Program-made: the position numbers and the translations under genes | Notes under the pieces: generated by a model | Told to the model about the DNA's origin: nothing | The model's input: the letters and a program-made list of their open reading frames with translations, nothing else | Database searches by the model: none | Shown: piece by piece, positions 11,321 to 63,914 of the stretch | Layout of the letters: the number at the start of each line of letters is the position of its first letter | Numbering within the stretch: the first letter of the stretch is position 1 | DNA from: Anaerolineae bacterium | GTDB taxonomy: Bacteria; Chloroflexota; Anaerolineae; Aggregatilineales; Phototrophicaceae | Reading direction: 5' to 3' | DNA: 64,000 nucleotides | NCBI GenBank assembly: GCA_022820665.1 | Contig: JAJEFB010000014.1 | Location: forward strand, 62,001 to 126,000

Positions 11321-11409
11321 TATTTTAACAAACCACGTCGCTCATGCGACGAGAAGGCTTATTATTTTGTGTGAGCGCGGCAAACTTTTTCGCTGCCGCC
11401 GAGCGGCTC
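11321..11409 (+). repeat. Interspersed hairpin repeat, copy 1 (tail type A)
   Basis: Starts with the T-run TATTTTAA, followed by the hairpin CGTCGC-TCAT-GCGACG (11336-11351), GAGAAGGCTTATTATTTTG, GTGAGCGCGGC and the tail CGCTGCCGCCGAGCGGCT. It fills the gap between the GT39-like gene and the GT4 gene, both on the minus strand. See the findings for the family. Confidence 0.85.
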
Positions 11410-11456
11410 TAAGCTTAGTATCAAGCGAAAAGCGCTGCAAACGGGGGAATCCGAAA

Positions 11457-12632
11457 TTATTTGCGCGCGTGCTCCAACAAAACAGATTCGAATCGATCAA
11501 AGGTGTTTTTCAAGGAAAAGCGCTTGGCAACGAAGTCTTTGGGTTTGATATATTTCTCACGGTTATCCAGAACTTCCAGCGTGGTCCTACCAATTGACTC
11601 CCAGTCGCCGGATTTGGCCAGTTTCCCCATGCCGGTTACTTGAACCGGTACGCGGCCGCCATAGACGTCTGTCATGACGACCGGCGTTCCACAAAGCATG
11701 GATTCACCCAGAACTGCCGGAAAACAATCGTTGTTGCTCGGCAAGACCAGCACATCGCAAGCCGCGTAAAAGTTGGCCATTTGCCGCTTGTCGCGGATCA
11801 GGCCCAGAAATATAAGTTGCGACTTGTACTTTTCGACCAGCTCCTTCTGAAGGTTCCAGGTATTCTCGTAGTTGAGGTTGTACTCGCCGGCAAAGATGAT
11901 TCGAGTCTTTGGATATTTTTGGTTTATGACGTCCAGCGCTTTTATGAGCAGATCGGGCCTTTTTTCATGGGCGAAGCGCCCTGCGAATCCAATCAGCGGC
12001 CCATCCTCACATTGCCATTTGTTTCTGAGTTTTGCGGCGTTTTCCAGGTTGGGATCGTGAATTGAAATAGGTGGGTAAACCACTGCCAGCTTGTCGCGGA
12101 ACGGACGGAGATAGTAGGAATTCTCGGCATAATCGTCGCTGAAGCCTATGATACATGGGGCGCGCCTGGCCATAAAGGCGTACATGGCGTACATCATCTT
12201 CACGATCGCCTTGTTCAACAATCCCTCCGGTAGAAATAAATCCCCATGGTGCGTCGGGATGACCTTCAAGCCCGCCAATCCCGCTAAAACACTGACTAGC
12301 GCGGTTTCAAGCATCGGCGTGTGTATGCTGACGATGTCATGCTGGCGCATTAGGCGAAGCAGATGCCAGGGATAGCTTGGCAATATCATGCCCCGGCTCA
12401 ACCGCACGGGCGCCCAGACTCTAACGATGCGCACGCCGTTATGCGTCTCCGGATGCTTTGGCAGTTCTTTGTCGTGCCTGGAAGCGAGTACCGTCACTTG
12501 ATGGCCCCGCCGCACCAATTCCTCAGCGAACATCTGCACGTAATACGTAAGGCCGGTGGGGTGGGGATAGTAGTAAAGAAGCGTGATTAGAACTTTCAGC
12601 TTGCGGCTGTTTTCAGCTTGTCCAGAATTCAT
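11457..12632 (-). CDS. GT4-type glycosyltransferase (GT-B fold)
   Basis: 391 residues and soluble. The N-terminal acceptor domain begins LKVLITLLYYYPHPTGLTYYVQ, the usual first strand and glycine loop of GT4 enzymes, followed by AEELVRRGHQVTVLAS. The C-terminal nucleotide-sugar domain has LIGFAGRFAHEKRPDLLIKA (basic donor-binding segment), YAACDVLVLPS and then DCFPAVLGESMLCGTPVV. The first glutamate of the common E-x7-E motif is replaced by aspartate, as in some relatives. Expected to add a sugar from a nucleotide-sugar to a lipid-linked or capsule acceptor on the cytoplasmic side, feeding the GT-C enzymes in this locus. The donor cannot be read from the sequence. Confidence 0.85.
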   Translation of the reverse strand: MNSGQAENSRKLKVLITLLYYYPHPTGLTYYVQMFAEELVRRGHQVTVLASRHDKELPKHPETHNGVRIVRVWAPVRLSRGMILPSYPWHLLRLMRQHDIVSIHTPMLETALVSVLAGLAGLKVIPTHHGDLFLPEGLLNKAIVKMMYAMYAFMARRAPCIIGFSDDYAENSYYLRPFRDKLAVVYPPISIHDPNLENAAKLRNKWQCEDGPLIGFAGRFAHEKRPDLLIKALDVINQKYPKTRIIFAGEYNLNYENTWNLQKELVEKYKSQLIFLGLIRDKRQMANFYAACDVLVLPSNNDCFPAVLGESMLCGTPVVMTDVYGGRVPVQVTGMGKLAKSGDWESIGRTTLEVLDNREKYIKPKDFVAKRFSLKNTFDRFESVLLEHARK

Positions 12633-12641
12633 TGATCAATC

Positions 12642-13760
12642 TTACGTGGATGCTTGATCCAAAGATTGGACATGAGAACGCAACTGCGTCAGCGAGACAC
12701 CCTCGAATATCAAGCCAACACCGCCGGTCACGATGTAGACCAGAATGTTCTGGGCGTGCACGGCAAGGGCGAAGGCGGTAATCTTGTCCAGTTCCTTATG
12801 CCCTAATAATGTAAATGCTACAACTATGGAGAATTCATACGCGCCTAGATTACCTGGAACTAACGGAATCGCAATAGCAAATGAAGCCGAAGCGATGGAA
12901 AACATAATTGCCACCCAATCGCCCTGATCAAAAAAGGCTAGCATCAATACATAATTCGTGATCACTGAAAGTAACCAACTGATCGCCGTCCAGATGAGCG
13001 CGCGCGCTAAAGGAGCGAAATCTAGCAAGGGTTGCAGACCGTCGAGAAACTCGCGAGCAAGTATCTCCGGCTTTAATCCCTCGGGCAAAGGCAGCGCATT
13101 GGAGACGCGTCCAATCGACTTATCGGTAAGTCCGCGCCAACGAGCCATTGCCAGGAGCGCGACGAATCCGCTTACGGAAAATATCGCTCCCAGCATTGCT
13201 AGATGCCGCAGCTCGGCGCTCACCGGCGCGACGGCCGTGGCGATCATCGCCAACAGCGCGACTCCCAATACATCCAGCAGCCTCTCGACCAAGATGGTGC
13301 TGCCTGTATGCATGAAGGGAATTTGCTTGTTGGCGCGCGTTGTCAAGAACAGGCGAGCAACTTCGCCGATTCGCAGTGGAATGACGCCGTTTACCAAGTA
13401 TGCGATATTCATGATATTGAAGGCGCGATGCAATGGCAGTTGACCACCCAGCAAACCACCCCAGCGCAATGCCCTGGTAAACAGTCCCACCATGAAAAAC
13501 AAGAGGCTGGCCACAAGAAAACGATAGTCCGCGCTCAACAGGGTCGACAAAAGCGCTTCAAGATCTACGCGGCTAACCAGCAGCGCTGCAATAGCGAAAC
13601 CCGCAACAGTGCCGGCAAGTGTCCTTCTATGTAGTCGCAAATCCCTCTCCGAACGGTGATGTCGATTGGAAACAAACGCGCTATTGACAACCGCGCGGCC
13701 AATTCGTCCCAATATGCTCAGCGGCATTACTATATCACGGCGACTTGACGCTTGGAGCAT
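12642..13760 (-). CDS. AglD/MprF-type integral membrane protein (LPG_synthase_TM, UPF0104)
   Basis: 372 residues with about eight membrane helices. Family-typical pieces are LRWGGLLGGQLPLHRAFNIMNIAYLVNGVIPLRIGEVARLFL and the late LVPGNLGAYEFSIVVAF (quoted as separate motifs: RIGEVARLF and PGNLGAYE). The family includes the transmembrane part of lysylphosphatidylglycerol synthase and archaeal AglD, and often accompanies glycosyltransferases. Two starts are possible: ATG 13760 or ATG 13727. The -35 box of the divergent tRNA-Gly promoter lies at 13745-13750, inside the first codons of the longer form, so 13727 is the simpler choice. It lies 9 bp from the downstream GT4 gene, which suggests an operon. 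Confidence 0.8.
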   Translation of the reverse strand: MLQASSRRDIVMPLSILGRIGRAVVNSAFVSNRHHRSERDLRLHRRTLAGTVAGFAIAALLVSRVDLEALLSTLLSADYRFLVASLLFFMVGLFTRALRWGGLLGGQLPLHRAFNIMNIAYLVNGVIPLRIGEVARLFLTTRANKQIPFMHTGSTILVERLLDVLGVALLAMIATAVAPVSAELRHLAMLGAIFSVSGFVALLAMARWRGLTDKSIGRVSNALPLPEGLKPEILAREFLDGLQPLLDFAPLARALIWTAISWLLSVITNYVLMLAFFDQGDWVAIMFSIASASFAIAIPLVPGNLGAYEFSIVVAFTLLGHKELDKITAFALAVHAQNILVYIVTGGVGLIFEGVSLTQLRSHVQSLDQAST

Positions 13761-13773
13761 GATTTTCTATAAT
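13745..13773 (+). promoter_or_regulatory. Sigma70-type promoter of tRNA-Gly
   Basis: TTGACG (13745-13750), 17-bp spacer, TATAAT (13768-13773). The predicted transcription start falls about 5 nt before the tRNA. Confidence 0.8.
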
Positions 13774-13784
13774 ATTGACAGTTT

Positions 13785-13857
13785 GCGGGTGTAGCTCAGT
13801 TGGTAGAGCGCCTGCTTCCCAAGCAGAAGGTCACGGGTTCGAGTCCCGTTACCCGCT
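13785..13857 (+). tRNA. tRNA-Gly, anticodon CCC
   Basis: 73 nt. The acceptor stem GCGGGTG pairs with TACCCGC (last pair G-T). The D arm is TAGCTCAGTTGGTAGAGC, the anticodon loop TTCCCAA gives anticodon CCC, and the T arm is ACGGGTTCGAGTCCCGT. The top pair of the anticodon stem is a C-A mismatch. CCA is not encoded (TTGT follows). A terminator hairpin follows within 15 nt, so it is a single-tRNA transcription unit. Confidence 0.95.
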
Positions 13858-13870
13858 TGTCATGTTCGTG

Positions 13871-13894
13871 CCCACCGAAGGGTGGGTGTTTTCT
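13871..13894 (+). terminator. Rho-independent terminator after tRNA-Gly
   Basis: Stem CCCACC-GAAG-GGTGGG followed by TGTTTTCTT. Confidence 0.8.
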
Positions 13895-14019
13895 TGCCCG
13901 AAGAGCATTGACCCTTGGCTCTTGCGCATTTAGAATTATCGGGCTATTGACCCGACAACGATCGGCAACTTGACCGAGGATTGCGCCTCGGGTTTAGGGA
14001 ACTGAAGGAGAACTTTATT

Positions 14020-14664
14020 ATGGCGGAATTTGAACTGGCTGCCGAAGTCCGGAATGCGCACGGCAAGCGAAACCGCGAGTTGCGCAGGCAAGGATTTGTC
14101 CCCGGCATCGTTTACGGACCCAGCAATGATCCGATTAGCGTGCAGTTCCCGTATCGCGCAATTGAGGTGACCTTGATGAACGCGGGCGGGACCAATCTGA
14201 TCGATATTGTCGTCGATGGCAAGGCATATCCATCGCTTGCGCGCGAAGTGCAGCGGGATGTGGTTCGGGGCGACATCTTGCATGTGGACTTCCTGGCGGT
14301 CGACTCCTCCCAGCGGATCCGCGTGGAGGTGCCGATTATCATGGAAGGGCGCAGCCCGGTCGTTGCGACTCGCGAGGGGATTCTGATCACGGGCAGGAGC
14401 GCGCTGACCTTGGAAGTTTATCCGGATGACATTCGCGACCGTATCGTCATAGACCTGTCACATTTGACCGAACTCGGCTCGGAGGTGCTGGTAGGCGACC
14501 TGGAATTCGGTGAAAATGTGACCGTACACAGCGATCCAAATGAGATGCTCGCCAAGATTGTGCAGCCGGCCGCAGCCCGCGCCGAATTGGAACTGGATGA
14601 ACTTGAAGGCGAAGAGGGCGAAGAAACAGACGAAGATTCCGCAGAAGAAGACGAAGAAGAGTAA
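14020..14664 (+). CDS. rplY: 50S ribosomal protein L25, long CTC/TL5 form
   Basis: 214 residues. The start is ATG 14020, with GAAGGAG 8 nt upstream and the conserved opening MAEFELAAEVRNAHGKRNRELRRQGFVPGIVYG. The N-terminal L25 domain (1-95) binds 5S rRNA. The second beta domain (about 100-185, beginning with VPIIMEGRSPV) makes this the CTC/TL5 form rather than the short E. coli form. The C-terminus is a strongly acidic tail of about 26 residues (runs of E and D), common in this form. A strong terminator follows. It is an isolated gene between tRNA-Gly and gyrA. Confidence 0.93.
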   Translation: MAEFELAAEVRNAHGKRNRELRRQGFVPGIVYGPSNDPISVQFPYRAIEVTLMNAGGTNLIDIVVDGKAYPSLAREVQRDVVRGDILHVDFLAVDSSQRIRVEVPIIMEGRSPVVATREGILITGRSALTLEVYPDDIRDRIVIDLSHLTELGSEVLVGDLEFGENVTVHSDPNEMLAKIVQPAAARAELELDELEGEEGEETDEDSAEEDEEE

Positions 14665-14696
14665 TCCGCAAGGGACTCAACAAGCGAAATTCCAAG

Positions 14697-14726
14697 AGGC
14701 GGTGTCATATTGGCGCCGCCTTTTTT
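14697..14726 (+). terminator. Terminator of rplY
   Basis: AGGCGG and CCGCC flank a short loop and are followed by six T. The T-run merges with the start of repeat copy 2. Confidence 0.75.
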
Positions 14727-14815
14727 GATAAGTCACGTCGCTCATGCGACGAGAAGGCTTATTACTCTGCGTGAGCGCGTCAGTTCTTCCCACTGCCGTT
14801 CTGTCCCGAGCGGTT
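14721..14815 (+). repeat. Interspersed hairpin repeat, copy 2, overlapping the gyrA 3' end
   Basis: T-run, hairpin CGTCGC-TCAT-GCGACG (14736-14751), GAGAAGGCTTATTACTCTG, CGTGAGCGCG and a degenerate tail ending CCCGAGCGGTTC. The tail covers the last dozen codons and the stop of gyrA on the opposite strand. Confidence 0.82.
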
Positions 14816-17362
14816 CTCGTCACCAGCGGACAGCAGAGCGTCGGGTTCGTCTTCATCATCGTCTCGCATGATGGCGATGCCAGCGACCGCGTCATTTTCT
14901 TCCAGCTTCATCAAGATTACGCCCTGCGTGTTGCGTCCGGTTTCTCGAATCTCCGACAGGCGAGTCTGTATAACTTTTCCCCCCTTCGAGATCAAGACAA
15001 TATCATCCTCTGGGCGAATGCAGCGCATGGCCACCACCGGTCCCGTGCGCTCATTTCGCTTCAATGTCCGCACGCCCAATCCATATCGATGCTGTGGCTT
15101 GTAATATACTTGGTCTTCGGCGCCCTCGCTGCCATCATCACTAGATATCAGCGTGCGTTTGCCGTAACCATTTTCCGTGACGATGAGCAGATGGCTGTGT
15201 TCGCCCGTCAAGACATCCATGCCGGCGATCTCGTCGTCATCCCGCAAGCGCATCCCGATTACGCCCTGCGCTTGACGGCCCATGACGCGCACTTCCTCCG
15301 CTTTGAAACGAATGCACTGACCATTGACCGACGCCATGACAATATCATGATCGCCCTTGGACCACTTCACGGATCGCAAGCTGTCACCGTCGTTAAACTG
15401 AATCGCCATCAAGCCGCTTGGGCGGATATAGCTGAATTCGCTGAATGCCACTTGCTTCACGCGGCCCTTGCTGGTCGCCAGCACAAAGTACCCTTCCTCA
15501 AGCTCGAGGACATCGTCGGCTACGGCAAGTACGACGGAGACCTTCTCATCTCCTTCCAGTGGCAAGATGCTTTGGATGAGCAGACCGCGCCTTTCTCTTA
15601 AGGTCTCTGGTATGTCGTAGGCTCTGCGAGAGTAAACCTTGCCCTTGTTGCTGAAGAACAAGATCATATCGTGGCTGTGCGCGAAGAATACGTCCTTTAA
15701 CGTATCATTGTCTTTGATCGCCATGCCGCGCATGCCTTTGCCGCCGCGCCGCTGTGAACGATAGTGACGAGCCGCAACTCTTTTTATGTATCCTTGTTCC
15801 GTCAGCGAAATCACCACATTTTCCCGGCGATAAAGATCCCCTTCTTCGAGGTCGACTATGCCATGCATAACCGCGGATTTACGTGCGTCGCCGTATTTCT
15901 CGGCGATTTCGGCAACGTCTTCGCGAATCAGCCCCAGGATTTTCTGTGGCGAGCTTAGCAGATCTTCAAGATATTCGATACGCGCCCGAACCGTGTCATA
16001 TTCATCCTGCAGCTTTTGCCTTTCCAAAGCAGCCAGACGCCTCAACTGCATGTCGAGTATGGCATTGGCTTGGATCTCGTCCAATTCCAAATTCGCCATC
16101 AATTGTTCTCGGGCGCCATTGACGTCGGGAGAATTGCGGATCATTTGAATGACCTGGTCGATGTTCGACACTGCCTTAAGCAGACCGGTCAATACGTGCG
16201 CTCGCGCCCGCTGTCGCTCCAAATCATATTCAGAGCGCCGCACAATCACGTCATAACGATGCTCAATATAAATCCGTAACGCGCGTTTGAGGGGCAAGGT
16301 GCGTGGTTCGCCGTTGACCAGCGCCAGCATTTGAATGCTATAGACACTTTGTAATTGCGTGTATTTGTAAAGTTGATTGATAACTCGCTGTGGTTGCGCG
16401 TGGCTCTTTAGTTCGACAACAAGGCGCAGACCTTGACGGTCGGATTCGTCGCGCAAGTCGCGAATCGCTTCGATACGGCTCTCGCGCACCAGAGCGACGA
16501 TCCGTTCAATGATGGCCGACTTGCTCACCTGGTAAGGAATGGACGTGAAGACGAGATTCTTGCCTTCCCCGGGACCCTCTTCAATATCGACGGTGGACCG
16601 CACCGCGACGCGCCCCTTGCCCGTGGCGTATGCCTCTCTCAGATCTTCGCCAATGACGATCGTGGCGCCGGTAGGGAAGTCCGGACCCTTGATGAATTGC
16701 ATGAGATCGTCGACTGTGACGTCGGCAGCGTCGTCGTAGTTGTCAATCAAATAGGTGATGGCGCTTGCCAACTCCCGCAGATTATGCGGCGGGATGTTGG
16801 TCGCCATGCCCACTGCGATGCCGCTGGTGCCATTGAGCAGCAGGTTGGGCAAGCGCGCGGGAAGAACCGTCGGTTCCGCTTGCGTGCCGTCGTAATTCTC
16901 CGCGAATTCGACAGTGTCCATGTTGATGTCTGTCAACATTTCGCCGGCGATATTAGCCATGCGCGCCTCGGTATAGCGCATCGCCGCGGGCTTGTCTCCG
17001 TCCTGGCTGCCAAAATTGCCTTGGCCGTCAACCAGCGGGTAGCGCAGCGAGAAATCTTGGGCCATGCGGGCCATGGCGTCGTAAACCGCCTGGTCGCCGT
17101 GCGGGTGATACTTGCCCAGTACTTCGCCAACGAGTCGGGCGCTCTTTTTGTATGCCGTGCCGGGACGCAGACCCATATCGTACATGGCATAAAGTATGCG
17201 CCGATGTACGGGCTTTAGCCCGTCTCGGGCGTCGGGAAGCGCGCGCGCCACGATCACGCTCATGGCATAGTTGAGATAACTGCCGCGCATCTCTTCGTTG
17301 ATCGTGATCGTGCGAATGTTTCCCGCGTTGTCTTCTGGCAAATCCGAGTCGATTATGTCCAT
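14780..17362 (-). CDS. gyrA: DNA gyrase subunit A
   Basis: 860 residues, full length. The catalytic tyrosine is Tyr130 in [10 protein letters not shown]. The helix that binds cleaved DNA reads [12 protein letters not shown], so the position equivalent to E. coli Ser83 is Gln91, while the acidic residue equivalent to Asp87 (Asp95) is kept. The GyrA box is present as [11 protein letters not shown], which marks it as gyrase rather than topoisomerase IV. The six-bladed C-terminal pinwheel is followed by a short acidic, polar tail whose last residues are encoded by repeat copy 2. gyrB is not in the window. A likely promoter lies about 310 bp upstream, so repeat copy 3 would be in the leader. Confidence 0.96.
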
Positions 17363-17434
17363 ATCATGTGGCTAAACCAGATATCTGATTTGCGCATGGC
17401 TCCTTTCGCGGCCGACGAAATATCCTTGGCGACT

Positions 17435-17531
17435 CTTTTTTAATAAATCGCGTCGCTCATGCGACGAGAAAGTTTATTATTTTATGTGAACGCGGCATTC
17501 CTGTGGACCATTCGCTGCCGCCGCGCGGCTT
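17435..17531 (+). repeat. Interspersed hairpin repeat, copy 3 (tail type A)
   Basis: T-run and TAATAAATCG, hairpin CGTCGC-TCAT-GCGACG (17451-17466), GAGAAAGTTTATTATTTT, then ATGTGAACGCGGCATTCCTG and the tail CGCTGCCGCCGCGCGGCT. It lies upstream of gyrA and is oriented against it. Confidence 0.85.
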
Positions 17532-17679
17532 ATACGACATCACTCGCGCCCTGGAAACGACTACCCGCCTTGGACCGGATAGCGCCAGACCAGCAAAATC
17601 AGTCGCTATAGACGATCGGCAAAGCCGGTTCCCCACAGGTATTTGTGACACCGTTGCGCCAACGCCATTATTGATATGT

Positions 17680-17688
17680 ATTATAGCA
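17680..17688 (-). promoter_or_regulatory. Extended -10 promoter, probably for gyrA
   Basis: On the minus strand the sequence reads TGCTATAAT, a perfect extended -10. The -35 region is poor, as is usual with extended -10 promoters. Confidence 0.5.
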
Positions 17689-17973
17689 TGTTTGCGCCAG
17701 CATACTACTTGCGCGCGAGGCTAAACAGGACATTCGCTTCAAAATCAGTTTGTGAAGATCGCCACATAAATTGTCCAAATTGTAGCCCGAATTCTGGCTA
17801 GGAACGGTTGGATAAGCACACGGAATCTGATTCCAAAAAATCCTCGCTGTCGCTTGCCAGCATGAAGTAACACGGATTTGTCTTTCTTGGCAGAAATAGC
17901 TGACTTATTTGCGTACTTTGTTACTTGCAAAGCGGCTATTTCGAAAAACCTAATAATTTGCGCCAAACTTCGC

Positions 17974-18002
17974 TTGCATTAGCTAAACGAAAGGGCTAGA
18001 AT
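17974..18002 (+). promoter_or_regulatory. Weak promoter candidate for the 157-residue membrane protein
   Basis: TTGCAT, 17-bp spacer, TAGAAT. The -35 is only half conserved. It would give a leader of about 105 nt ending in the GAGGAGG site before ATG 18112. Confidence 0.35.
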
Positions 18003-18111
18003 ATTGTACAAAAGCAACAAGGAATCGCTGTATTTGTTGCTCGATTTTGCAATGCCTTAAGGCTTGCGAATCACACCAATAAGCTCTTAAGTATTACGAG
18101 GAGGAAAAAAG

Positions 18112-18585
18112 ATGGACAGCGATAAAATGAGAAGGGGGATTATTCCGGGGATAATCGCCGGCTATGTATTTTTGGCATTCATCGGCGCGTCTATGGTGCC
18201 AATGATGGACGCCGAAGGCAACATGTCTATGGAAATGAACAATGGCATGCTCGAGATGGTCGGCGGCATGATTAGCGCCGACGCCTTTGTTGGCTTCATC
18301 CTGCATGTCATCATCAGTGCTGTAATTGGCGCTCTCTACACGGGACTGTTCGCGGACCGGGTGGACTTGGGCAATCCCTTGATGAACATAGCCGTGGGCG
18401 GCTTGATCTACGGTTTGATCTGGTGGATCATCGGTGGGAACATCATCATGCCGGCGGTTGCGGGTGGAGATGTCTTAAGTCTTAACTTCCAAGATCCCAG
18501 CCTGTTTGGACATGTCATATTTGGCCATGTCCTGGCATTTCTCGTCGTCTTGCGCGACCGGGCTTTTGGCATGACCGACGAATAA
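18112..18585 (+). CDS. Unknown small integral membrane protein
   Basis: 157 residues with four likely membrane helices: about 9-30 (IIPGIIAGYVFLAFIGASMV), 60-82, 92-115 and 130-148. The loop after the first helix is rich in Met and acidic residues (MDAEGNMSMEMNNGMLEMVGG). The start is ATG 18112, with GAGGAGG a few bases upstream, one of the strongest ribosome binding sites in the window, so good translation is expected. It is a single-gene unit with its own terminator. I do not recognise the family. The Met-rich loop may suggest soft-metal contact, but that is weak. Confidence 0.72.
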   Translation: MDSDKMRRGIIPGIIAGYVFLAFIGASMVPMMDAEGNMSMEMNNGMLEMVGGMISADAFVGFILHVIISAVIGALYTGLFADRVDLGNPLMNIAVGGLIYGLIWWIIGGNIIMPAVAGGDVLSLNFQDPSLFGHVIFGHVLAFLVVLRDRAFGMTDE

Positions 18586-18636
18586 GCGCTTGACGCTCTA
18601 AAAACTTGCTGCGGCAAGTTAGTGCAAACTGAATAA

Positions 18637-26442: not shown

Positions 26443-26934
26443 ATGAGACTGAAGAAGACAGGCCAATTGGCGATACGTTTTGCGGTGGAGGAAGACTTGA
26501 GGCGGGCAGCTCTTATTTGGAACGAGCGCGCGTCGTTACTTCAGCAGTCGGATGATCTTCAGCCATTGAACCCGGAGCGGATTCCCGATTGGCAACGACG
26601 AGCCAGATCGTGGTTGAAGAACGACGAGTGCGGTTTCTTTGTAGGGGAGGTGAACAAGAGCATCAGTGGCTACATAGTGGTCATGATCTCCGAGGGACCA
26701 GCCGGGCTGGGACCGGCCGTCGTTGGGAAAGTGATCGACATGGCTGTTGATCTGCATGAATCTTGTCCCGGTCTCAGTGGCGCATTGTTGGATGAAGCGC
26801 GTAAATGGCTCAAGGCGCGCGACGTAGGTTTTTTGATCGTGGACGTACCAGCGCGTTATCCCGTTGAAGAGGCTTTCTGGCGGGCGCAAGGCGCGCGTTT
26901 GCGATTTAATCAGAATTGGTTAACTCTATTTTAA
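26443..26934 (+). CDS. GNAT-like N-acetyltransferase
   Basis: 163 residues. It opens IRFAVEEDLRRAALIWNERASLL, the usual first strand and helix of the GNAT fold. The central strands GFFVGEVNKSISGYIVVMIS and VVGKVIDMAVDLHESCPGLSGALLDEARKWL fit the acetyl-CoA-binding part, although the R/Q-x-x-G-x-G/A loop is replaced by CPGLSG. The last strand has the GNAT-typical VPARYPVEEAFWRAQGARL. Substrate unknown. Its stop codon lies inside the T-run at the left end of repeat copy 4, and a second GNAT gene begins at the right end of that repeat. Confidence 0.7.
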   Translation: MRLKKTGQLAIRFAVEEDLRRAALIWNERASLLQQSDDLQPLNPERIPDWQRRARSWLKNDECGFFVGEVNKSISGYIVVMISEGPAGLGPAVVGKVIDMAVDLHESCPGLSGALLDEARKWLKARDVGFLIVDVPARYPVEEAFWRAQGARLRFNQNWLTLF

Positions 26935-27014
26935 TACCCCCTTGCTCACGCAAGGAGAAGGCTGGTTATTTTGTGCGAGCGCGGTCGACCCTATCGCTGC
27001 TGCCGCGCGGCTGT
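26926..27014 (+). repeat. Interspersed hairpin repeat, copy 4 (covariant hairpin, tail type A)
   Basis: CTATTTTAATAC, hairpin CCTTGC-TCAC-GCAAGG (26940-26955), GAGAAGGCTGGTTATTTTG, GCGAGCGCGG and the tail CGCTGCTGCCGCGCGGCT. Two stem pairs differ from copies 1-3 on both arms. Its left end contains the stop codon of one GNAT gene and its right end touches the GTG of the next. Confidence 0.85.
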
Positions 27015-47411: not shown

Positions 47412-47745
47412 CGGCTCCCCCAAAATCGCTTTTCGGCAATCTCGAAAATCGCGAACATTTGTTCTTCTTTTCTACTCAAAGTGGTGATATGCTCTCCCTA
47501 TGGATCAATTATCGCAAGCCCTCAATCTCGCTCCCCAGCCGCTGACCTCCGCCTGGTCCCGCCTTCACCGCCAGACTCGAAAAAGTATCTCCCGAAAAAA
47601 CAGACTGTATCTATACGGTGTCGATACACTTGCCAAAATTAGGGAGACAGCTAGAGGCGTTTCAGAGGCATGTCAGGGGCGGAAGCCGACTTTATGGCGG
47701 CGGACGCGCCGGAAAACCAAATTCATACCGTCAGCCGCCTGCCTT

Positions 47746-47813
47746 TTGTCCGTTTCAGCCACAAAACCGCATCTATTGTCCGAAAAATATATTTTATTGT
47801 CCGAAACGGACAA
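47746..47813. promoter_or_regulatory. Cluster of TTGTCCG sites including a perfect dyad
   Basis: TTGTCCG occurs at 47746, 47776 and 47797; the third is followed by its reverse complement, making the perfect 17-bp dyad TTGTCCGAAACGGACAA (47797-47813). Site starts are 30 and 21 bp apart, close to three and two helical turns, so a protein could bind them on one face. Binding protein and target unknown. Confidence 0.5.
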
Positions 47814-47951
47814 AGTCGAACAAAAAAATAAACCGAAAACAAATGCTCGCCGAGAGTGGCTTCATTCTGACTGCACGATAACTTCGCTGGCAAACATAAA
47901 ACTTTGTGTCGGCGGCTTAGCGCTGTCGACGCGACCGACGTTCAGTGTCGA

Positions 47952-51784: not shown

Positions 51785-51811
51785 AGACGCAGTTACTGCG
51801 TCTTTATTCTC
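51785..51811 (+). terminator. Terminator of the rpmH-jag operon
   Basis: AGACGCAG-TTA-CTGCGTCT followed by TTATTCTCTTTCT. Repeat copy 5 begins at its end. Confidence 0.8.
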
Positions 51812-51905
51812 TTTCTAATAAACCGCGTCGCTCAAGCGACGAGAAGGCTCGTTATTTTGCGTGAGCACGGTGGTTCTTCTCGCCGGTTACGCGCCGTGCG
51901 GCTGC
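51811..51905 (+). repeat. Interspersed hairpin repeat, copy 5 (tail type B)
   Basis: CTTTCTAATAAACCG, hairpin CGTCGC-TCAA-GCGACG (51826-51841), GAGAAGGCTCGTTATTTTG, CGTGAGCACGG and the tail CGCCGGTTACGCGCCGTGCG. It lies 17 bp before the PfkB kinase start. Confidence 0.85.
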
Positions 51906-56821: not shown

Positions 56822-56855
56822 TCCCCGAATAACCCGTTGAGACCGTGATCAGATC

Positions 56856-56890: not shown

Positions 56891-57074
56891 CCTTTGAGCG
56901 ATTTCACATGCCGTTTCCGCGTCTTGCTTGCGTCAGTCATGCGACTGGACTTGTGCCTGTCCGCGGCCGATTTATGCTGGTCTTGGCTTGCGAGTTTTGC
57001 GAGATTCGCCCATTATCGATAGCTATACATTGAGCCGCTGAAGACAAAATCATCAACTGCTAGGGGAGCGCTGC

Positions 57075-59231
57075 ATGTCCAGTATCGCATCGATGCCAAA
57101 ACCTGCCCAGCCGGGTAATCCGGTTGTCGCGATTGCCAATACCAAGTCGGCATACAGCAACGTCCGCCGCGGCCCCGGCATTAACTATCAAGATGTTGGA
57201 GATTTGATGGATAATGCGCTGGTCGTCTATTATCCGGATACGAAAACGCCGGGAAACTGGGTCTGGGTGGAGAAGGCGGGTTTGCGCGGATGGGTCTATG
57301 CCGGATACATCGAATTCATTCCCGCTATTGGCGCGGCGCCCTCGCCACATCCACCGACGCCATATGATGGCAAAGTCGCGCTTTGGCACTGGAAGGGAAG
57401 TGCCATCCCCGAAGATTCAATCGAACAACTGCTCAGCAACATCAAATCTCGCAGTCCAAACGTGAACCAGATTTGGGTCAAGATCACCGAAGGCAGTGAC
57501 TGGATGGGCGAGTTCGATAGCAGCGATCTTGCGATATCAGGCGCGAGCGCCATCGATACATGGGTAAGCGCCTGTCAAAGCGCCGGACTCGAGTTTCATG
57601 CCTGGTGCGTACCGCATGGCTTGGATGCGGAGGCGGAAAGCGCCATTCTAATCGAAGCCTGCGGGCGCCCCGGCGTCCATTCGCTGATTCTGGACATTGA
57701 GCAGCCGCCAGGCTACTGGCAGGGCGGAGAAGCGGGTGTCCGTCCCTTCATGCTCGCGCTTCGACGCGGGCTGGGCACGAACTTTCATATTGGCATAAGC
57801 GTGGATCCGCGTCAGCACAACAAGGCGGCGATTTTCCCCGACGCCTGGAATCCCTTTGTCGATAGCGTACATCCACAGACTTATTGGGCGACCTTTCGCA
57901 GATCGGTCGAAAATACGCTGAGCGATATGTACGCCGCCTGGGGCGGATACGGCAAACCGATAATCCCGGCTTTGCAGGGCAAGGCGCCCGTTCAAGAACA
58001 AACGGAGGCGCATACGCTTGCGACGCAGCAGCACGGCGCAAAAGGATTGAGTTGGTGGCGCTACGGCGTGATTTCTCAGTGGACGGCGATCAACACGGCA
58101 ATTGAGTTGACTCAGTCCCCAGCCGACCCGAGCCTCGAAAACATTGAGAACTTCACGGATGAGGTCACTATTTTGCCCGCTGGCCAAGGTTTCCGCAGCG
58201 GGACCTATACGGGCCAGCCTGAATTCAATGTGCGGCAGAATACCTGGGGCTGGGACTACCTGCATACAACTACGGAAGTCCGGACGAGCAAAGTTTGGGC
58301 GGAATGGCGGGACGATCTGCCACAATCCGGGCTATACGAGATCTCCGCATTTATTCCCAGTCGATACTCGACTACGACGCGCGCGCGTTACAAGGTGCAC
58401 GGCATCGTCGGCACCGACACCGAAGTCGTAATCGACATCAACCAGCATATCAACCGCAATACCTGGGTGCCCCTGGGCATATTTGATTTGGATCGCCGCA
58501 TGCCCAATGCCGGGCGCGTCTTCTTGAATGACGTGACCGGCGAGGAGGGCAAATCGATCGCTTTTGATGCCGTGCGTTTTCGCCGAATTGTTTCTACCCC
58601 GCCGGGCTATACGCCCGCCCCGGACCCTGGCAATCAGCCTTCATCGCCACCATCCAGCGGCGGGGACAGGCCTAGCGTGGTGAACGGCGTATATGTCGCC
58701 GATGGCTACGACTCGCCCATTGGCACCACCCAACAACGCAATGGTCCCGATGTATGGCCCCACGGTTGGCGGGATGCCTCTCCCTTTGGCAAGCTGTATT
58801 TCATCGGTACGCCCAGCGAAGCATATCACACCGGCGCCGACTTGAATTTCGGTCGCCCCTATGAAGACCGAGGAATGTCGATTTATTCTTGCGCTAGCGG
58901 CGTCGTCACATTTGCGGCGCGATTAAGCATTTGGGGGAATCTGATCGTAATCAAGCACGATCCATTGCACAAACCCGGCGGGGCGGTGATATACAGCCGC
59001 TATGCGCACGTACAGAATATGCGAGTGGTAGTGGGCCAGAGGGTTGCGCGTGGGGAACGAATCTGCGAGGTTGGCGACGCTTTTGGGCGCTTTGTACCCC
59101 ATTTACATTTTGATCTCAGCCCAACTACTATGTTCGAGAATCGGCCCGGGAATTGGCCCAAGCTCAACTACGACATGTTGATGAGGCACTATATAGATCC
59201 CTTGCAGTGGATCCGGAGGAATAGACCATAG
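57075..59231 (+). CDS. SH3b - TIM barrel - golvesin-like - M23 peptidase fusion
   Basis: 718 residues from ATG 57075, preceded by TAGGGGAG. No signal peptide or membrane helix is visible. Order: SH3b-like domain (about 17-75, SAYSNVRRGPGINYQDVG); TIM-barrel part resembling glycoside hydrolase-like domains (about 86-345, KVALWHWKG and LILDIEQPPGYW); golvesin/xly-like beta domain (about 372-515); P/S/G-rich linker; M23 (LytM) endopeptidase (about 560-700) with zinc ligands His585 and Asp589 in HTGADLNFG, and HLHFD (His676, His678). M23 enzymes cut peptidoglycan peptides. All ligands are present, so it looks active; how it leaves the cell is unclear. Confidence 0.85.
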   Translation: MSSIASMPKPAQPGNPVVAIANTKSAYSNVRRGPGINYQDVGDLMDNALVVYYPDTKTPGNWVWVEKAGLRGWVYAGYIEFIPAIGAAPSPHPPTPYDGKVALWHWKGSAIPEDSIEQLLSNIKSRSPNVNQIWVKITEGSDWMGEFDSSDLAISGASAIDTWVSACQSAGLEFHAWCVPHGLDAEAESAILIEACGRPGVHSLILDIEQPPGYWQGGEAGVRPFMLALRRGLGTNFHIGISVDPRQHNKAAIFPDAWNPFVDSVHPQTYWATFRRSVENTLSDMYAAWGGYGKPIIPALQGKAPVQEQTEAHTLATQQHGAKGLSWWRYGVISQWTAINTAIELTQSPADPSLENIENFTDEVTILPAGQGFRSGTYTGQPEFNVRQNTWGWDYLHTTTEVRTSKVWAEWRDDLPQSGLYEISAFIPSRYSTTTRARYKVHGIVGTDTEVVIDINQHINRNTWVPLGIFDLDRRMPNAGRVFLNDVTGEEGKSIAFDAVRFRRIVSTPPGYTPAPDPGNQPSSPPSSGGDRPSVVNGVYVADGYDSPIGTTQQRNGPDVWPHGWRDASPFGKLYFIGTPSEAYHTGADLNFGRPYEDRGMSIYSCASGVVTFAARLSIWGNLIVIKHDPLHKPGGAVIYSRYAHVQNMRVVVGQRVARGERICEVGDAFGRFVPHLHFDLSPTTMFENRPGNWPKLNYDMLMRHYIDPLQWIRRNRP

Positions 59232-59277
59232 TCGCTGCATGTTTCTGGGATTCCTGCGCGTCAGAGCTGCGGCGAGC

Positions 59278-59583
59278 TCAGAACAGACCCCAGTCGCTTG
59301 CCGCGCCTTCTTCCATCATGCTGGGGTCCCACATCTCCATACCCATTTCGATGGTCGTTGGCACGCCCAAGAAATCTTGCGCTGTGCGGCGCGTTTGCTC
59401 CAACAATTGAGGCGCATATGGGCAAAATGGCGTGGTCATGATCATGTTGACATGCGCGCGGTCCTCTTCTATGTCGACACCGCGGACAAGACCCAACTCG
59501 ATGATGTTCATGCCGATTTCCGGATCAATGACGGATCGCAAGGCTTCGTAGAGTCCGGCTTCCTTTTCAACCGTTTCCTGCAT
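59278..59583 (-). CDS. MIP18/DUF59-family Fe-S assembly factor (SufT-like)
   Basis: 101 residues. Typical DUF59 layout: LYEALRSVIDPEIGMNIIELGLVRGVDI, then HVNMIMTTPFCPYAPQLLEQTR with the conserved cysteine in TPFCP, then PTTIEMGMEMWDPSMM. Such proteins aid maturation of Fe-S proteins, and the family includes SufT and PaaD. The gene is divergent from sufC, with 471 bp between them containing a repeat and strong regulatory features, which supports a link to the SUF system. Confidence 0.88.
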   Translation of the reverse strand: MQETVEKEAGLYEALRSVIDPEIGMNIIELGLVRGVDIEEDRAHVNMIMTTPFCPYAPQLLEQTRRTAQDFLGVPTTIEMGMEMWDPSMMEEGAASDWGLF

Positions 59584-59680
59584 AGGTTTGTTCCCCCCGC
59601 GCGTTGAGTCTGTAAGTCCTCAAAAGACTGCCCAATTCAACCAGACATCACTGGCTGTGAAGGCATGGAAAACTATCAGT

Positions 59681-59779
59681 TATTTTTGAACCCTCTTGCT
59701 CGCGCAAGAAGACAGCTTCTTGTTTTGCGTGAGCGCGACATTCCTGGGTTCTTCTTGCCGGTTACGCGCCGAGCGGCTT
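59681..59779 (+). repeat. Interspersed hairpin repeat, copy 6 (covariant hairpin, tail type B)
   Basis: TATTTTTGAACCC, hairpin TCTTGC-TCGC-GCAAGA (59694-59709), AGACAGCTTCTTGTTTTG, CGTGAGCGCGACATTCCTGG and the tail TGCCGGTTACGCGCCGAGCG. Three stem pairs differ from copies 1-3 on both arms. Confidence 0.82.
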
Positions 59780-59828
59780 TGGATGCTTCCCGCGCTCAAC
59801 GAACCTAGCATAGTACAGCGTCCCTTAG

Positions 59829-59867
59829 TTGTCAATCAGGTCGGCATCTGACAATTCTGACCTGATT
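59829..59867. promoter_or_regulatory. Overlapping inverted repeats upstream of the suf promoter
   Basis: AATCAGGTC (59834-59842) is repeated inverted as GACCTGATT (59859-59867). TTGTCA (59829-59834) is repeated inverted as TGACAA (59849-59854). There is no T-run, so regulator binding is more likely than termination. Confidence 0.45.
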
Positions 59868-59952
59868 CTATTGTTGATCTGATACCATTAGCGGATTGTT
59901 TCGTTCACCAGTCAGAAAAGCGCCGATCACATTCAGCGTCGCTTCTACCGCA

Positions 59953-59981
59953 TTGACATGCTGAGAGGGCGCTGTTATACT
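59953..59981 (+). promoter_or_regulatory. Strong sigma70-type promoter of the suf operon
   Basis: TTGACA (59953-59958), 17-bp spacer, TATACT (59976-59981): a perfect -35, a near-perfect -10 and ideal spacing, the best promoter in the window. Confidence 0.85.
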
Positions 59982-59995
59982 GCGAACAAGTTCGA

Positions 59996-60022
59996 GTCGG
60001 TTATAGAGTAAATTTAACCGAC
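59996..60022. promoter_or_regulatory. Operator-like dyad downstream of the suf promoter
   Basis: GTCGGTTA (59996-60003), 11 bp, TAACCGAC (60015-60022): a perfect 8-bp inverted repeat starting about 8 nt after the expected transcription start. A repressor here would block elongation. The half-site TAACCGA also occurs at the tpx promoter. Confidence 0.6.
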
Positions 60023-60054
60023 ATTAAACTACAGTGAGAGGAGATACGCCAGGA

Positions 60055-60846
60055 ATGGTAGCGACGTTGGAAATACGCAACCTCCATGCGAGCGTGGACG
60101 CGGAAGATGATCTGATTTTGAATGGGGTCAACCTGACCATAAGGCAGGGCGAAGTCCACGCGCTTATGGGACCAAACGGCTCCGGCAAAAGTACGCTGGC
60201 CAACGTTTTGATGGGCAATCCCGCCTATGTTGTGCGCGAAGGGCAAATATTGCTCGATGGCGAAGATCTGTTAGAGATGGAAGCCGACGAACGCAGCCGC
60301 GCTGGCTTGTTTCTGGCATTTCAGTACCCGGTGGCGATACCCGGGGTGACGCTGGGCAACTTCTTGCGCCATGCCATAAACGCGCGTTTGAAGGCAGAAG
60401 ATCCGGAAAGCAAAGGCATCCCGATCCCGCAATTCGCGCGTATGATGCGCCAAAAGATGAGCGCCTTGCAGATTGATCAGTCCTTTGCCGGCCGCTACCT
60501 CAACGAAGGATTTAGCGGTGGAGAAAAGAAACGCGCGGAGATCTTGCAGATGGCTGTGCTTGAACCCCGGATCGCTGTGCTTGATGAGACCGATTCCGGC
60601 CTGGATATCGACGCTCTGCGAATTGTCGCTGACGGGGTCAACTCGCTCGCCGGTCCCGATATGGGCGCACTGGTGATCACACATTATCAGCGCATTCTCA
60701 ACCACATAAAGCCGGACTTCGTCCACGTCCTGTATGATGGTCGTATCGTGGAAAGCGGGGGACCTGCGCTCGCGCTCGAGCTGGAAGAAAAAGGCTACGA
60801 ATGGGTGCGCGAAAAGCATAGTATGCTGCAAGCTGCCGAAGCCTAA
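60055..60846 (+). CDS. sufC: Fe-S cluster assembly ATPase SufC
   Basis: 263 residues from ATG 60055 ([14 protein letters not shown]); GAGAGGAG lies about 10 nt upstream, and an in-frame GTG at 60034 overlaps that site. ABC-type ATPase that drives the SufBCD scaffold. Walker A is GPNGSGKST (about 39-47), the signature [11 protein letters not shown] (about 153) and Walker [15 protein letters not shown] (about 172-185); the catalytic glutamate follows the aspartate in DET, and the switch histidine is in LVITHY. First gene of the suf operon. Confidence 0.96.
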
Positions 60847-60870
60847 ACTTAGCCCAATGAGGTAAGCAAC

Positions 60871-62319
60871 ATGTCCGAAGTAATCAAAAGCGATAAGCAA
60901 CTCACTATCGAGGAAGAGGCGCTGAAGGATGTCGGCTTAACCTACGCGGAGAAGTACGGTTTCCATGACGACGATGTTGATTATTCCTTCAAGAGCCAGA
61001 AGGGCATCAACGAGGAGATTGTTCGTCAAATCAGCGCGATCAAGGAAGAGCCTCAGTGGATGACCGACCTGCGGGTCGAGGCATATCATATCTTTATGGA
61101 TAAGCCGACGCCGCAATGGGGCGGGGATCTCAATACCATCAACTACGACGACATCTACTATTACGTGCGCGCCACGGACAAGACCGAGCAAGATTGGGAT
61201 GAAGTGCCGCAGGAGATCAAAGAGACCTTTGACAGGCTGGGGATTCCCGAAGCCGAGCAAAAGTTCCTGCATGGCGTCTCCGCCCAGTACGACAGCGAAT
61301 CGGTCTACCACAAAATCCAGGAAAACCTGGAGGAACAGGGCGTAGTCTTCCTCGATATGGATTCGGGATTGCGGGAACATCCCGATGTCGTGAAGGAATA
61401 TTTCACGACGGTGATCCCATCCAACGATAACAAATTCGCCGCCTTGAATACGGCAGTATGGTCGGGCGGCAGCTTTATCTATGTGCCGCCGGGCGTTCAC
61501 GTGGAAATGCCTCTGCAGGCTTACTTCCGCATCAACACCCAGAACATGGGACAATTCGAGCGCACGCTGATCATCGTTGACGAAGGCGCTTATGTGCACT
61601 ACGTCGAAGGATGTACAGCGCCAATCTATAGCTCGGACAGCTTGCACAGCGCCGTAGTCGAGATCATCGTCAAGGAAGGCGGTCGCTGCCGCTATACGAC
61701 GATCCAGAATTGGTCCAACAATGTTTACAATCTGGTCACCAAACGAGCTGTCGCCGAAAAGAACGCCACAATGGAGTGGGTCGACGGCAATCTTGGCAGT
61801 CGACTTACCATGAAGTATCCCGCGGTGATCTTGCGCGGTGATGGCGCGCATGGCGAAGTACTGTCGATCGCATTTGCCGGCGAGGGGCAACACCAGGACG
61901 CCGGCGCCAAGATCACACATCTTGCGCCGAACACGACCAGCCAGATCATCAGCAAATCAATTAGCAAGGATGGCGGGCGCGCCAGCTATCGCGGATTGCT
62001 CAAGATCGCCGAAGCGGCCCGCAATAGCAAGAGCAACGTGGTCTGCGACGCCTTGCTTCTCGACGATTTCAGCAGGTCGGATACCTATCCGACCATCGAG
62101 ATAGACGCCCGGGACGTGACCATGGGCCACGAAGCCTCCGTGAGCAAGGTCGGCGAAGATCAATTGTTCTATCTGATGAGCCGCGGCATGGGTGAAGACG
62201 AAGCCAATGCGATGATCGTGAATGGTTTCCTCGAGCCTTTGGTCAAGGAACTGCCAATGGAATACGCGCTGGAGTTGAATCGACTGATTCAGATCCAGCT
62301 GGAGGGTTCCATCGGCTAG
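60871..62319 (+). CDS. sufB: Fe-S cluster assembly scaffold protein SufB
   Basis: 482 residues. Scaffold on which the cluster is built. The core beta-helix runs from about 200 to 420, with [59 protein letters not shown] and TLDGxxGSRLT-like [15 protein letters not shown]. The cysteine in [20 protein letters not shown] is at the position linked to cluster assembly in E. coli SufB. The C-terminus [24 protein letters not shown] is family-typical. 24 bp after sufC. Confidence 0.96.
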
Positions 62320-62388
62320 TCATTTCCGAGCGCGCTAGGCGCAACTCGAAGTCATATCCAGATACCAAGTCACAGAAGGAGACTATGC

Positions 62389-63723
62389 GTGGCTGTTGTG
62401 AGACGGCGGTCTACACTCCCGCAAGCGCCGGTATACGCCAAAGCGGATGTCGAAGCGCTGAGCGAAAAACATGATGAACCCGGTTGGATGCGCGAACGGC
62501 GCATCAGAGCCTGGGAACTGTACGAAAGCACGCCAATGCCTTACATGGAAGAGGAATGGCGGCGCACGGATTATCGACACATTCGTTGGGATCAAGCTTC
62601 GACGATGGTCGTAGCCAACGGCGCCGGCGCGGAACAAGTGCCCGCAAAGCATTTGGAGCCTCTCACCGGCGAGGAGCAGGGCGGTCTGCTGGTATTGGTC
62701 GACGGCAAAGTGGTACGTCGCGAACTCGCCGACGAGTTGCGCGATCAGGGCATCGTATTTGCCGACCTGCGCACAGCGCTAAGGGAACATGAAGAGCTGC
62801 TGCGCAAGCACTTCATGACCACGGCTGTCAAAGCGAGTGAAGGCAAGTTTGCCGCGCTGCACGCCGCGCTTTGGGATCATGGCGCCTTCATCTTTGTTCC
62901 GCGCAATCGCCAGGCGACGCTGCCGCTGCACGTTGTCTGCTACAATTCGACCTCTGGCTCGGCAATGGGCCATGTTTTGGTGGTTTTAGAAGAAAACGCG
63001 GGCGCGACTGTACAGGTCGAATATGCCTCAAGCCCCGGCGATGAGCACGCATCGTACATTGGCGCCACCGAATTGATAGTTGGCGATGCTGGCAATCTGC
63101 GTTTCGTCTCCCTGCAAGACTGGAATCGCGAAACTTTTGAGTTCAGTCATCAACGCGGTCTGGTGGGCCGCGACGCGCAGTTGGATTGGGTCAACGGCGT
63201 GATGGGCAGCCGGCTTACCAAAGCCTTTATTGAGGTGGACGCTGTCGGCACGGGCGCCAACGCGCGCGTGAGCGGGTTCTTTTTTGCCGATCACGGCCAA
63301 TTCTTTGACCTTGATACGCAGCAGAATCACAACGCGCCGCTGACAAACACCGATCTCTTGTTCAAGGGCGCGGCGCGTGACAACGCCCGTACGCTTTGGC
63401 AAGGCATGATCAAATCTTTGCCGAAAATGCAGAAGATTGATGGCTACCAGGTCTGCCGCAACTTGATGTTGAGCGATGAAGCGCGCATGGATAGTATTCC
63501 AGGCTTGGAAATCGAGGCGGATGATGTGGCTTGTTCTCATGCCGCTACCTTTGGCACCTTGGAAGAAGAACCGATCTATTATTTGATGAGCAGGGGCATC
63601 ACGCGGCCACAGGCTCAACTCATGATTATCGAGGGCTTCTTTGACGAACTGCTGCAACGCATTCCCTTCGACCCGGTGCGGCGACGGCTGATGGACGAAA
63701 TCGAAGCGAAAATCATCGGCTAA
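62389..63723 (+). CDS. sufD: Fe-S cluster assembly protein SufD
   Basis: 444 residues from GTG 62389; AAGGAGA lies about 8 nt upstream. It pairs with SufB in the SufBC2D complex. An N-terminal helical part (WMRERRIRAWELYESTPMPYMEEEWRRTDYRHI) precedes the beta-helix: GAFIFVPRNRQATLPLHVVCYN, SLQDWNRETFEFSHQRG and WVNGVMGSRLTKAFIEVD. The conserved histidine in FADHGQFFDL-like FFDLDTQQNHNAPLT is present. The last domain is SCHAATFG-like ACSHAATFGTLEEEPIYYLMSRG. 69 bp after sufB. Confidence 0.95.
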   Translation: MAVVRRRSTLPQAPVYAKADVEALSEKHDEPGWMRERRIRAWELYESTPMPYMEEEWRRTDYRHIRWDQASTMVVANGAGAEQVPAKHLEPLTGEEQGGLLVLVDGKVVRRELADELRDQGIVFADLRTALREHEELLRKHFMTTAVKASEGKFAALHAALWDHGAFIFVPRNRQATLPLHVVCYNSTSGSAMGHVLVVLEENAGATVQVEYASSPGDEHASYIGATELIVGDAGNLRFVSLQDWNRETFEFSHQRGLVGRDAQLDWVNGVMGSRLTKAFIEVDAVGTGANARVSGFFFADHGQFFDLDTQQNHNAPLTNTDLLFKGAARDNARTLWQGMIKSLPKMQKIDGYQVCRNLMLSDEARMDSIPGLEIEADDVACSHAATFGTLEEEPIYYLMSRGITRPQAQLMIIEGFFDELLQRIPFDPVRRRLMDEIEAKIIG

Positions 63724-63792
63724 AGCCTCAGCTTGGACGCCCGTTTATGCGGTTCTTCCCGTTCTTCAAACCTGTAAGACCGGTCCGTCGTA

Positions 63793-63819
63793 GCGCATCT
63801 AAGTGATGCGCCTCTTTTT
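63793..63819 (+). terminator. Terminator after sufD
   Basis: GCGCATC-TAAGT-GATGCGC followed by CTCTTTTT. The T-run is also the left end of repeat copy 7. Confidence 0.82.
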
Positions 63820-63914
63820 AATAAGTCACGTCGCTTATGCGACGAGAAGGTTTGTTATTTTCTGTGAGCGCGGCATTCCTGGGACTTTTTCGCCGATTAC
63901 ACGCCGAGCAGCTG
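63813..63914 (+). repeat. Interspersed hairpin repeat, copy 7 (tail type B)
   Basis: TCTTTTTAATAAGTCA, hairpin CGTCGC-TTAT-GCGACG (63829-63844), GAGAAGGTTTGTTATTTTC, TGTGAGCGCGGCATTCCTGG and the tail CGCCGATTACACGCCGAGCA. It lies between sufD and the sufU-like start. Confidence 0.85.

What the first reader, a model, noticed from the sequence alone, without database searches (positions are those of the whole stretch)
11321..63914. Interspersed 90-100 bp repeat family with a covarying hairpin and constant orientation
Seven clear copies (11321, 14721, 17435, 26926, 51811, 59681, 63813) and one degenerate half copy (8339) share a T-run, a 6-bp hairpin, GAGAAGG, an AT-rich middle, GTGAGCGCGG and a GC-rich tail. 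The hairpin is CGTCGC/GCGACG in five copies, CCTTGC/GCAAGG in copy 4 and TCTTGC/GCAAGA in copy 6, so up to three of six pairs change on both arms together. This points to selection on the folded form. All copies read the same way although adjacent genes lie on both strands. The tail has two types (A: copies 1, 3, 4; B: 5, 6, 7) that do not follow the hairpin types, as if the parts were exchanged.
Basis: seen in the sequence. Interest (0 to 1): 0.72.

Follow-up and report, generated by a model that had tools for sequence, protein, structure and literature searches.

The report
Hairpin mobile element inserting at CT
These repeats are copies of a roughly 85-105 base-pair, hairpin-forming, non-coding piece of DNA that has repeatedly inserted at CT steps, nearly always between genes, in one genus of Chloroflexota-like bacteria; it is likely moved by a REP-type transposase, a gene found in related genomes but not detected in this one.

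Summary
The repeat is real and not confined to the window. A covariance model lists 150 matches in this genome (the scoring cap), 75 per strand, so the window's constant orientation is local.

It is a mobile element. The 11321 copy is absent from 5 of 5 close relatives; where the target bases survive (2 of 5) the empty site has one CT and the filled site two. At 14721 three genomes carry different subfamilies behind the same terminator-like hairpin and three are empty. One relative has a copy nested inside another at CT. It occurs in 24 of 34 genomes of the genus and 0 of 27 outside.

Likely mover: a REP-type Y1 transposase. Its E. coli homologue cuts at CT beside hairpins (PMC8266576). The gene is present in 5 relatives, and this genome carries the GTAG-tagged REPs typical of such enzymes. 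But the gene was not detected here, and its neighbours there are ordinary REPs, not this element. Transposition is shown; the enzyme is inferred.

The parts
11320..11408 (+). element copy, from left CT (11320-11321) to right CT (11407-11408); tail type A
   Evidence: coordinates; absent from 5 of 5 relatives, net insertion 87 bp
14720..14792 (+). element copy with its right end lost; it directly follows the terminator-like hairpin GAGGCGG...CCGCC behind the ribosomal protein L25 gene; sequence from about 14792 on is native
   Evidence: the right limit is approximate
17433..17530 (+). element copy, tail type A with the extra ATTCCTGTG stretch
   Evidence: in G020 the site is empty, in G008 and G032 only a GAGCGGCTGC-like remnant, in G016 and G021 other sequence
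26926..27012 (+). element copy, hairpin CCTTGC/GCAAGG, tail type A-like
51811..51903 (+). element copy behind the terminator-like hairpin GACGCAG..CTGCGTC that follows a Jag/KhpB-like gene; tail type B
59681..59778 (+). element copy, hairpin TCTTGC/GCAAGA, tail type B; no CT at the left edge; left limit approximate
63812..63913 (+). element copy behind the hairpin GCGCATC..GATGCGC, tail type B
8340..8382 (+). degenerate copy lacking the hairpin (left edge approximate, right CT 8381-8382)
   Evidence: right-half profile match 8358-8382, E = 0.0007; coordinates

Best explanation
The repeats are copies of a non-coding mobile element of about 85-105 bp that inserts at CT steps, and it is likely moved in trans, as a folded single strand, by a REP-type (HUH, Y1) transposase. 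Shown: sequence families within one genus, precise insertion leaving CT on both sides, empty orthologous sites, nested and head-to-tail insertions, a left palindrome kept by compensatory change, and a conserved right end GTGAGCGCGRCA..CGAGCGGCT. Inferred: an enzyme recognises the left hairpin by shape and cuts at the C-T step flanking each end; strand transfer joins the element to another CT, sometimes one just 3' of a hairpin (terminators, REP palindromes, its own hairpin). Hairpin and tail are modules exchanged between copies, by nested insertion, recombination or gene conversion. The host benefit, if any, is unknown; a selfish element is the simplest reading.
For: Empty site for the 11321 copy in 5 of 5 relatives; G008 and G016 read CACAT-CT-CTAAGC where this genome has CACAT-CT-element-CT-CTAAGC. 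Host repeat TCTGTGCCTCTGTGGTGAA: 118 uninterrupted places, control 0; 19 of 150 copies are followed by CTGTGGY, 16 of these with a matching left flank; the same site is used by other subfamilies in G006 and G016. Three subfamilies at one site. Nested copy in G016 at CT 3' of the older copy's left hairpin. Palindrome conservation. 9 of 108 non-host-repeat insertions lie within 6 nt behind a hairpin of 7 bp or more, against 1.9% of control CT sites (p = 0.0002, the best of nine settings, p 0.0002-0.041). After the right CT, G in 42 of 100 against 28.5% in control. TnpA-REP of E. coli and Stenotrophomonas cuts at CT beside the REP (PMC8266576, passages). A REP transposase is present in 5 of 34 genus genomes (four read, with HUH and Tyr by eye; NF047646 70 bits, below its cut-off of 80; PF01797 33.4 bits, above its cut-off). 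This genome has 25 GTAG-tagged palindromes in 660 kb held, against 6-11 for six other tags, 23 of the 25 beginning GTAGGGGCG.
Against: No PF01797 match at E <= 0.001 in this genome, though the relatives' REP transposases score only 7.5e-5 to 3e-4 there, so the absence is not secure. The transposase gene was not detected in the other five genomes with 66 or more copies (G008, G016, G020, G021, G032), whose PF01797 matches are a degenerate domain beside polA. In the four loci read the transposase is flanked by GTAGGGGCTTGCC..GGCAAGCCC REPs, not by this element. The element shows no GTAG at the foot of its palindrome. All 5 transposase genomes carry the element, but so do 24 of 34 overall, which is no significant link (hand calculation, about 0.15). 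The right half shows no excess of folding (mean z -0.2). CT at both ends would also fit a 2-bp recombination core. No replication-strand bias is shown.
Confidence: 0.45

Rival explanations
1. Same mobile element, but moved by an enzyme of a class not searched for or not yet described that recognises the hairpin and the CT step; the REP transposase of the genus is a bystander.
For: No match at E <= 0.001 to Y1, IS110, RVT_1 or serine recombinase in this genome; the transposase of five relatives sits among its own GTAG REPs.
Against: Only four families were searched; the assembly is 95.7% complete, and the REP transposases of relatives score near the E threshold.
Confidence: 0.25
2. Site-specific recombination with a 2-bp CT core (IS110 with a bridge RNA, or an IS607-type serine recombinase) of a circular miniature derivative.
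For: CT at both ends and one CT in the empty site; IS621 uses a CT core and targets REPs (PMC11208160, passages); in G016 an IS110 ORF lies between two element copies.
Against: IS110 in 7 of 34 genus genomes, not in this one nor in G008, G020, G021, G032; serine recombinase in 3 of 34, none of the six genomes with 66 or more copies. No bridge-RNA-like part is evident in under 105 bp, and a conserved palindrome would be unexplained.
Confidence: 0.12
3. Reverse transcription of a structured RNA with priming at CT behind hairpins, in the manner of group IIC introns.
For: Some targets are terminator-like hairpins, as for group IIC introns (PMC7923331, passages); right-half-only matches outnumber left-only ones (21 to 6 in stretches of this genome).
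Against: No RVT_1 match in this genome or in G008, G016, G020, G021. Most right-only matches are full-length copies with a diverged hairpin, read by eye. No intron RNA parts; no Rfam match but a tRNA in the window.
Confidence: 0.08
4. Not mobile: a conserved regulatory RNA or terminator module spread by descent and gene conversion.
For: Intergenic in 145 of 150, folded, orthologous copies at 51811 in G008, G016, G020. Replacement of copy types at one site could be gene conversion.
Against: Empty sites, insertion into an unrelated host repeat and nested copies; 75 to 75 orientation and no fixed position relative to genes.
Confidence: 0.04

Closest known systems
REP / REPIN elements with REP-associated tyrosine transposases (RAYT, TnpA-REP)
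   Same: High-copy, intergenic, non-coding, imperfect palindrome with an internal bulge, CT cut sites beside the hairpin (PMC8266576); a RAYT and GTAG REPs occur in the same genus.
   Different: About 85-105 bp and asymmetric, not a 20-40 bp palindrome or an inverted pair; no GTAG tag; hairpin sequence varies freely between subfamilies; no RAYT beside it in the loci read.
IS200/IS605 elements and their miniature derivatives
   Same: No terminal inverted repeats, subterminal hairpin, insertion beside a fixed short target without a longer duplication (family features recalled and from PMC6006769 passages).
   Different: No transposase with these ends was found; a second, right-end hairpin is not supported.
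IS110 / bridge-RNA elements
   Same: CT core at both ends, preference for repeats and REPs.
   Different: No IS110 gene in this genome at E <= 0.001; no bridge RNA.
Group IIC introns
   Same: Some insertions lie directly behind terminator-like stem-loops.
   Different: No intron RNA and no reverse transcriptase match in this genome.
CGTC-tagged REPs without a dedicated transposase
   Same: Palindromic repeats whose mover is unknown (PMC3733652, abstract and outline only).
   Different: There CGTC is an unpaired tag; here CGTC lies inside the stem of one subfamily.

Membership tests
REP / REPIN (RAYT-mobilised) | Palindrome with GTAG (or CGTC) tetranucleotide at its foot | tested here: not met
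   No such tag at the foot of the left palindrome in the copies read; GTGAG lies 5' of the right end, a resemblance only
REP / REPIN (RAYT-mobilised) | 20-40 bp palindromes, often in inverted pairs | tested here: not met
   85-105 bp asymmetric unit; tandem copies are head to tail
REP / REPIN (RAYT-mobilised) | RAYT gene in the genome, flanked by the repeat | tested here: inconclusive
   RAYT in 5 of 34 genus genomes, flanked by other REPs in the four read; not detected in this genome at E <= 0.001
REP / REPIN (RAYT-mobilised) | Strand cutting at CT beside the repeat | not testable with these tools
   Junctions lie at CT, but cutting needs an assay
IS200/IS605 miniature derivative | No terminal inverted repeats, no duplication beyond the shared short target | tested here: met
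   Empty sites
IS200/IS605 miniature derivative | Hairpins near both ends | tested here: inconclusive
   Left hairpin supported; right half mean z -0.2
IS200/IS605 miniature derivative | Parent element with the same ends and a Y1 transposase | tested here: not met
   No full element seen; 21 tail-pattern places outside the model list, 20 of them fetched, read as partial or diverged copies
IS110 | DEDD transposase in the genome | tested here: not met
   0 matches at E <= 0.001 in this genome, 7 of 34 in the genus
Group IIC intron or other retroelement | Reverse transcriptase in the genome | tested here: not met
   0 RVT_1 matches at E <= 0.001 in this genome, 7 of 34 in the genus
IS607-type serine recombinase element | Serine recombinase in the genome | tested here: not met
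   0 matches in this genome, 3 of 34 in the genus
Classical MITE of a DDE transposase | Terminal inverted repeats and target duplication | tested here: not met
   Ends CTTTTTTAATAAACC and CGAGCGGCT are not inverted repeats; no duplication beyond CT

The most novel reading that the evidence does not exclude
A genus-restricted orphan transposable element that is recognised by hairpin shape rather than sequence and inserted at CT steps by an enzyme class not yet described, with freely exchangeable hairpin and tail modules and a liking for CT directly behind terminator and REP hairpins.
Probability: 0.22. Interest if true: 0.78.

Novelty: new variant of a known kind. Interest (0 to 1): 0.52.

Why it matters
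How REP-like elements actually move has stayed open because precise insertions are rarely seen. Here empty, filled, nested and re-used sites can be read side by side in a set of about 34 species with copy numbers from 0 to more than 150. If the genus's REP transposase moves this unit, the shape-recognised, sequence-free hairpin would widen what such enzymes accept. If it does not, a new mover awaits discovery.

Tried and rejected
Constant orientation as a property: rejected. Coding function of the element: an open frame through the element in seven copies of a ~650-bp composite repeat, and chance open frames elsewhere, but stops in most copies; rejected as the general explanation. Phage carriage: 0 exact matches for two patterns in viral contigs. 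5' truncation as a mark of retrotransposition: no excess of left-only pattern places (142 in the genome, 107 in model hits, control 34), 21 right-only places, most of those read explained by diverged hairpins; left open. Strand of action from wobble pairs: 246 against 252, no answer. Controls that did not separate: 'pairs with a change on both sides' is 14 of 14 for the structure and for all slid versions, further pair types are 50 against 47-57 slid, and two-sided cells are 171 against 88-151 slid; the separating measures there are percent paired and the shuffles (mean 93.5, maximum 116). 136 of 150 copies have a CT in a nine-position window at the left edge, which chance alone would often give. 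Literature: searches showed no description of this element in the listings; that is a limited search of one open-access library. Structure prediction and fold search were not used.

Full report
What is there. Read with both junctions, a copy is: CT; a T-rich or GTTTATG leader; a palindrome AATAAACC-G-CGTCGC-TCAT-GCGACG-AGAA-GGTTTATT; TTATTTTGTGTGAGCGCGRCA with or without about 7 extra bases; then one of two tails ending CGAGCGG-CT.

How many and where. A pattern search gives 142 places in the 4.56-Mb genome against 34 for the reversed control. A covariance model built on 29 copies lists 150 matches, which is the number of candidates scored out of 2162, so it is a lower bound; 75 lie on each strand. 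With a home-made gene caller, 145 of 150 are intergenic: 48 antisense and 35 sense in tandem gene pairs, 43 between divergent and 14 between convergent genes, 5 with an open side. An exact pattern scan of named genome contigs found 12 stretches in four MAGs, all titled Chloroflexi bacterium; that the source is a Chloroflexota is inferred from this.

Fold. On 29 copies aligned by sequence alone, 86.9% of cells at the 14 pairs are standard pairs, against 29.8-51.5% slid; 18 cells are changed on both sides, against 2-6 slid and at most rarely more in shuffles (mean 5.9, 0 of 500 as high). On 176 copies less than 94% alike over the left 50 bases, from this genome and relatives, the figures are 74.3% against 33.9-47.4%, and 171 two-sided cells against a shuffle maximum of 116 but a slid maximum of 151. 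Some subfamilies carry quite different hairpins, such as ACCGC-GATC-TGCGGT in G016, G021 and G028. The left palindrome folds better than dinucleotide shuffles (mean z -1.8), the right half does not (-0.2).

Mobility. (a) The 11321 copy is missing in G008, G016, G020, G021 and G032, which match right up to both sides; G008 and G016 keep the target bases and have a single CT where this genome has CT-element-CT, a net gain of 87 bp. (b) 118 uninterrupted places of a host repeat TCTGTGCCTCTGTGGTGAA exist (control 0); 19 of 150 copies are followed by CTGTGGY, 16 of them with the matching left side, and other subfamilies use the same site in G006 and G016, so this is a target, not just a co-amplified flank. 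(c) At 14721, behind the hairpin GAGGCGG..CCGCC, G016, G020 and G032 are empty, while G000, G021 and G008 carry three different subfamilies within two bases of each other; independent insertion is the simplest reading, gene conversion is not excluded. (d) At 51811 four relatives hold a copy, 24 more distant genomes have gaps of 31-98 nt in which I see none, G016 has a second copy nested at TTATTCT^GTGTG of the first, and G032 a new copy head to tail with an old one. (e) Tail and hairpin types assort freely.

Target. The junction bases are CT on both sides; beyond the host repeat G follows in 42 of 100 against 28.5% of control CT sites. A minority lies directly behind hairpins: 8 of 136 against 1.6%, or 9 of 108 against 1.9% with a looser rule. 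Thresholds were chosen after seeing examples; nine settings gave p from 0.0002 to 0.041.

The mover. PF01548, PF00078 and PF00239 have no match at E <= 0.001 in this genome and, read from the tables, do not follow copy number. PF01797 has none here either, while 15 of 34 genus genomes ring. Those matches are of three kinds: 11 genomes with a 640-700 aa protein, read in six loci (L217, L219-L221, L224, L226) plus L218, lying directly upstream of polA in the two loci whose ORFs I listed, with a degenerate Y1 domain; ordinary Y1 genes in G033, which has no element; and, in G005, G010, G011, G026 and G028, a REP-associated tyrosine transposase. In the four of these five loci that I could read it has MPNHLHG and IRKYI and is flanked on both sides by GTAGGGGCTTGCC..GGCAAGCCC palindromes (motif meaning recalled), and a database search finds thousands of relatives, some named RayT (3663 proteins, 120 listed). 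This genome itself holds 25 GTAG-tagged palindromes in the 660 kb I have. The E. coli and Stenotrophomonas enzymes cut at CT next to a hairpin (PMC8266576, passages). Hence the commitment to a REP-type enzyme, as inference: no gene was detected in this genome, its known neighbours are other repeats, and the element lacks the GTAG tag.

Scores. Mobility is close to certain; the enzyme is not. The thing works like a REP or IS200/IS605 miniature, but I do not file it as a member, since the tag and size tests are not met.

Noticed in passing
L217:1-1863 (+), L220:1444-3288 (-), also L218, L219, L221, L224, L226: A protein of about 610-620 aa, lying directly upstream of polA in L217 and L220, ends in a Y1 transposase-like domain whose HUH reads FVY, FIH or FVH and which has no evident catalytic tyrosine; it looks like a domesticated, inactive domain.
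   Followed up: partly
G000 C14:101334, C22:58102, C30:280, C50:110514, C45:251485, C52:181977, C10:173723 (loci L011, L017, L024 and others): A composite repeat of about 650 bp, seven copies, carries an element-like segment inside an open frame MRLLDIHNHINAVYLFMQTLSLMRREGNLFCVSAAYLFAAALRLL that stays open in most copies.
   Followed up: partly
118 places in G000, many near contig ends: High-copy repeat TCTGTGCCTCTGTGGTGAA, itself unexplained, serves as a landing site.
   Followed up: partly
L222, L223, L225, L227: REP-associated tyrosine transposase with its own GTAG REPs at one conserved place, beside a permease-like gene, in four relatives.
   Followed up: partly
L228:636-738 (-), 817-2040 (-), 2671-2779 (-): In G016 an IS110 transposase ORF lies between two element copies of the same orientation.
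   Followed up: no
window 47745-47814: Inverted repeat TTTGTCCGTTTC../..GAAACGGACAAA, similar to a piece of the composite repeat.
   Followed up: no
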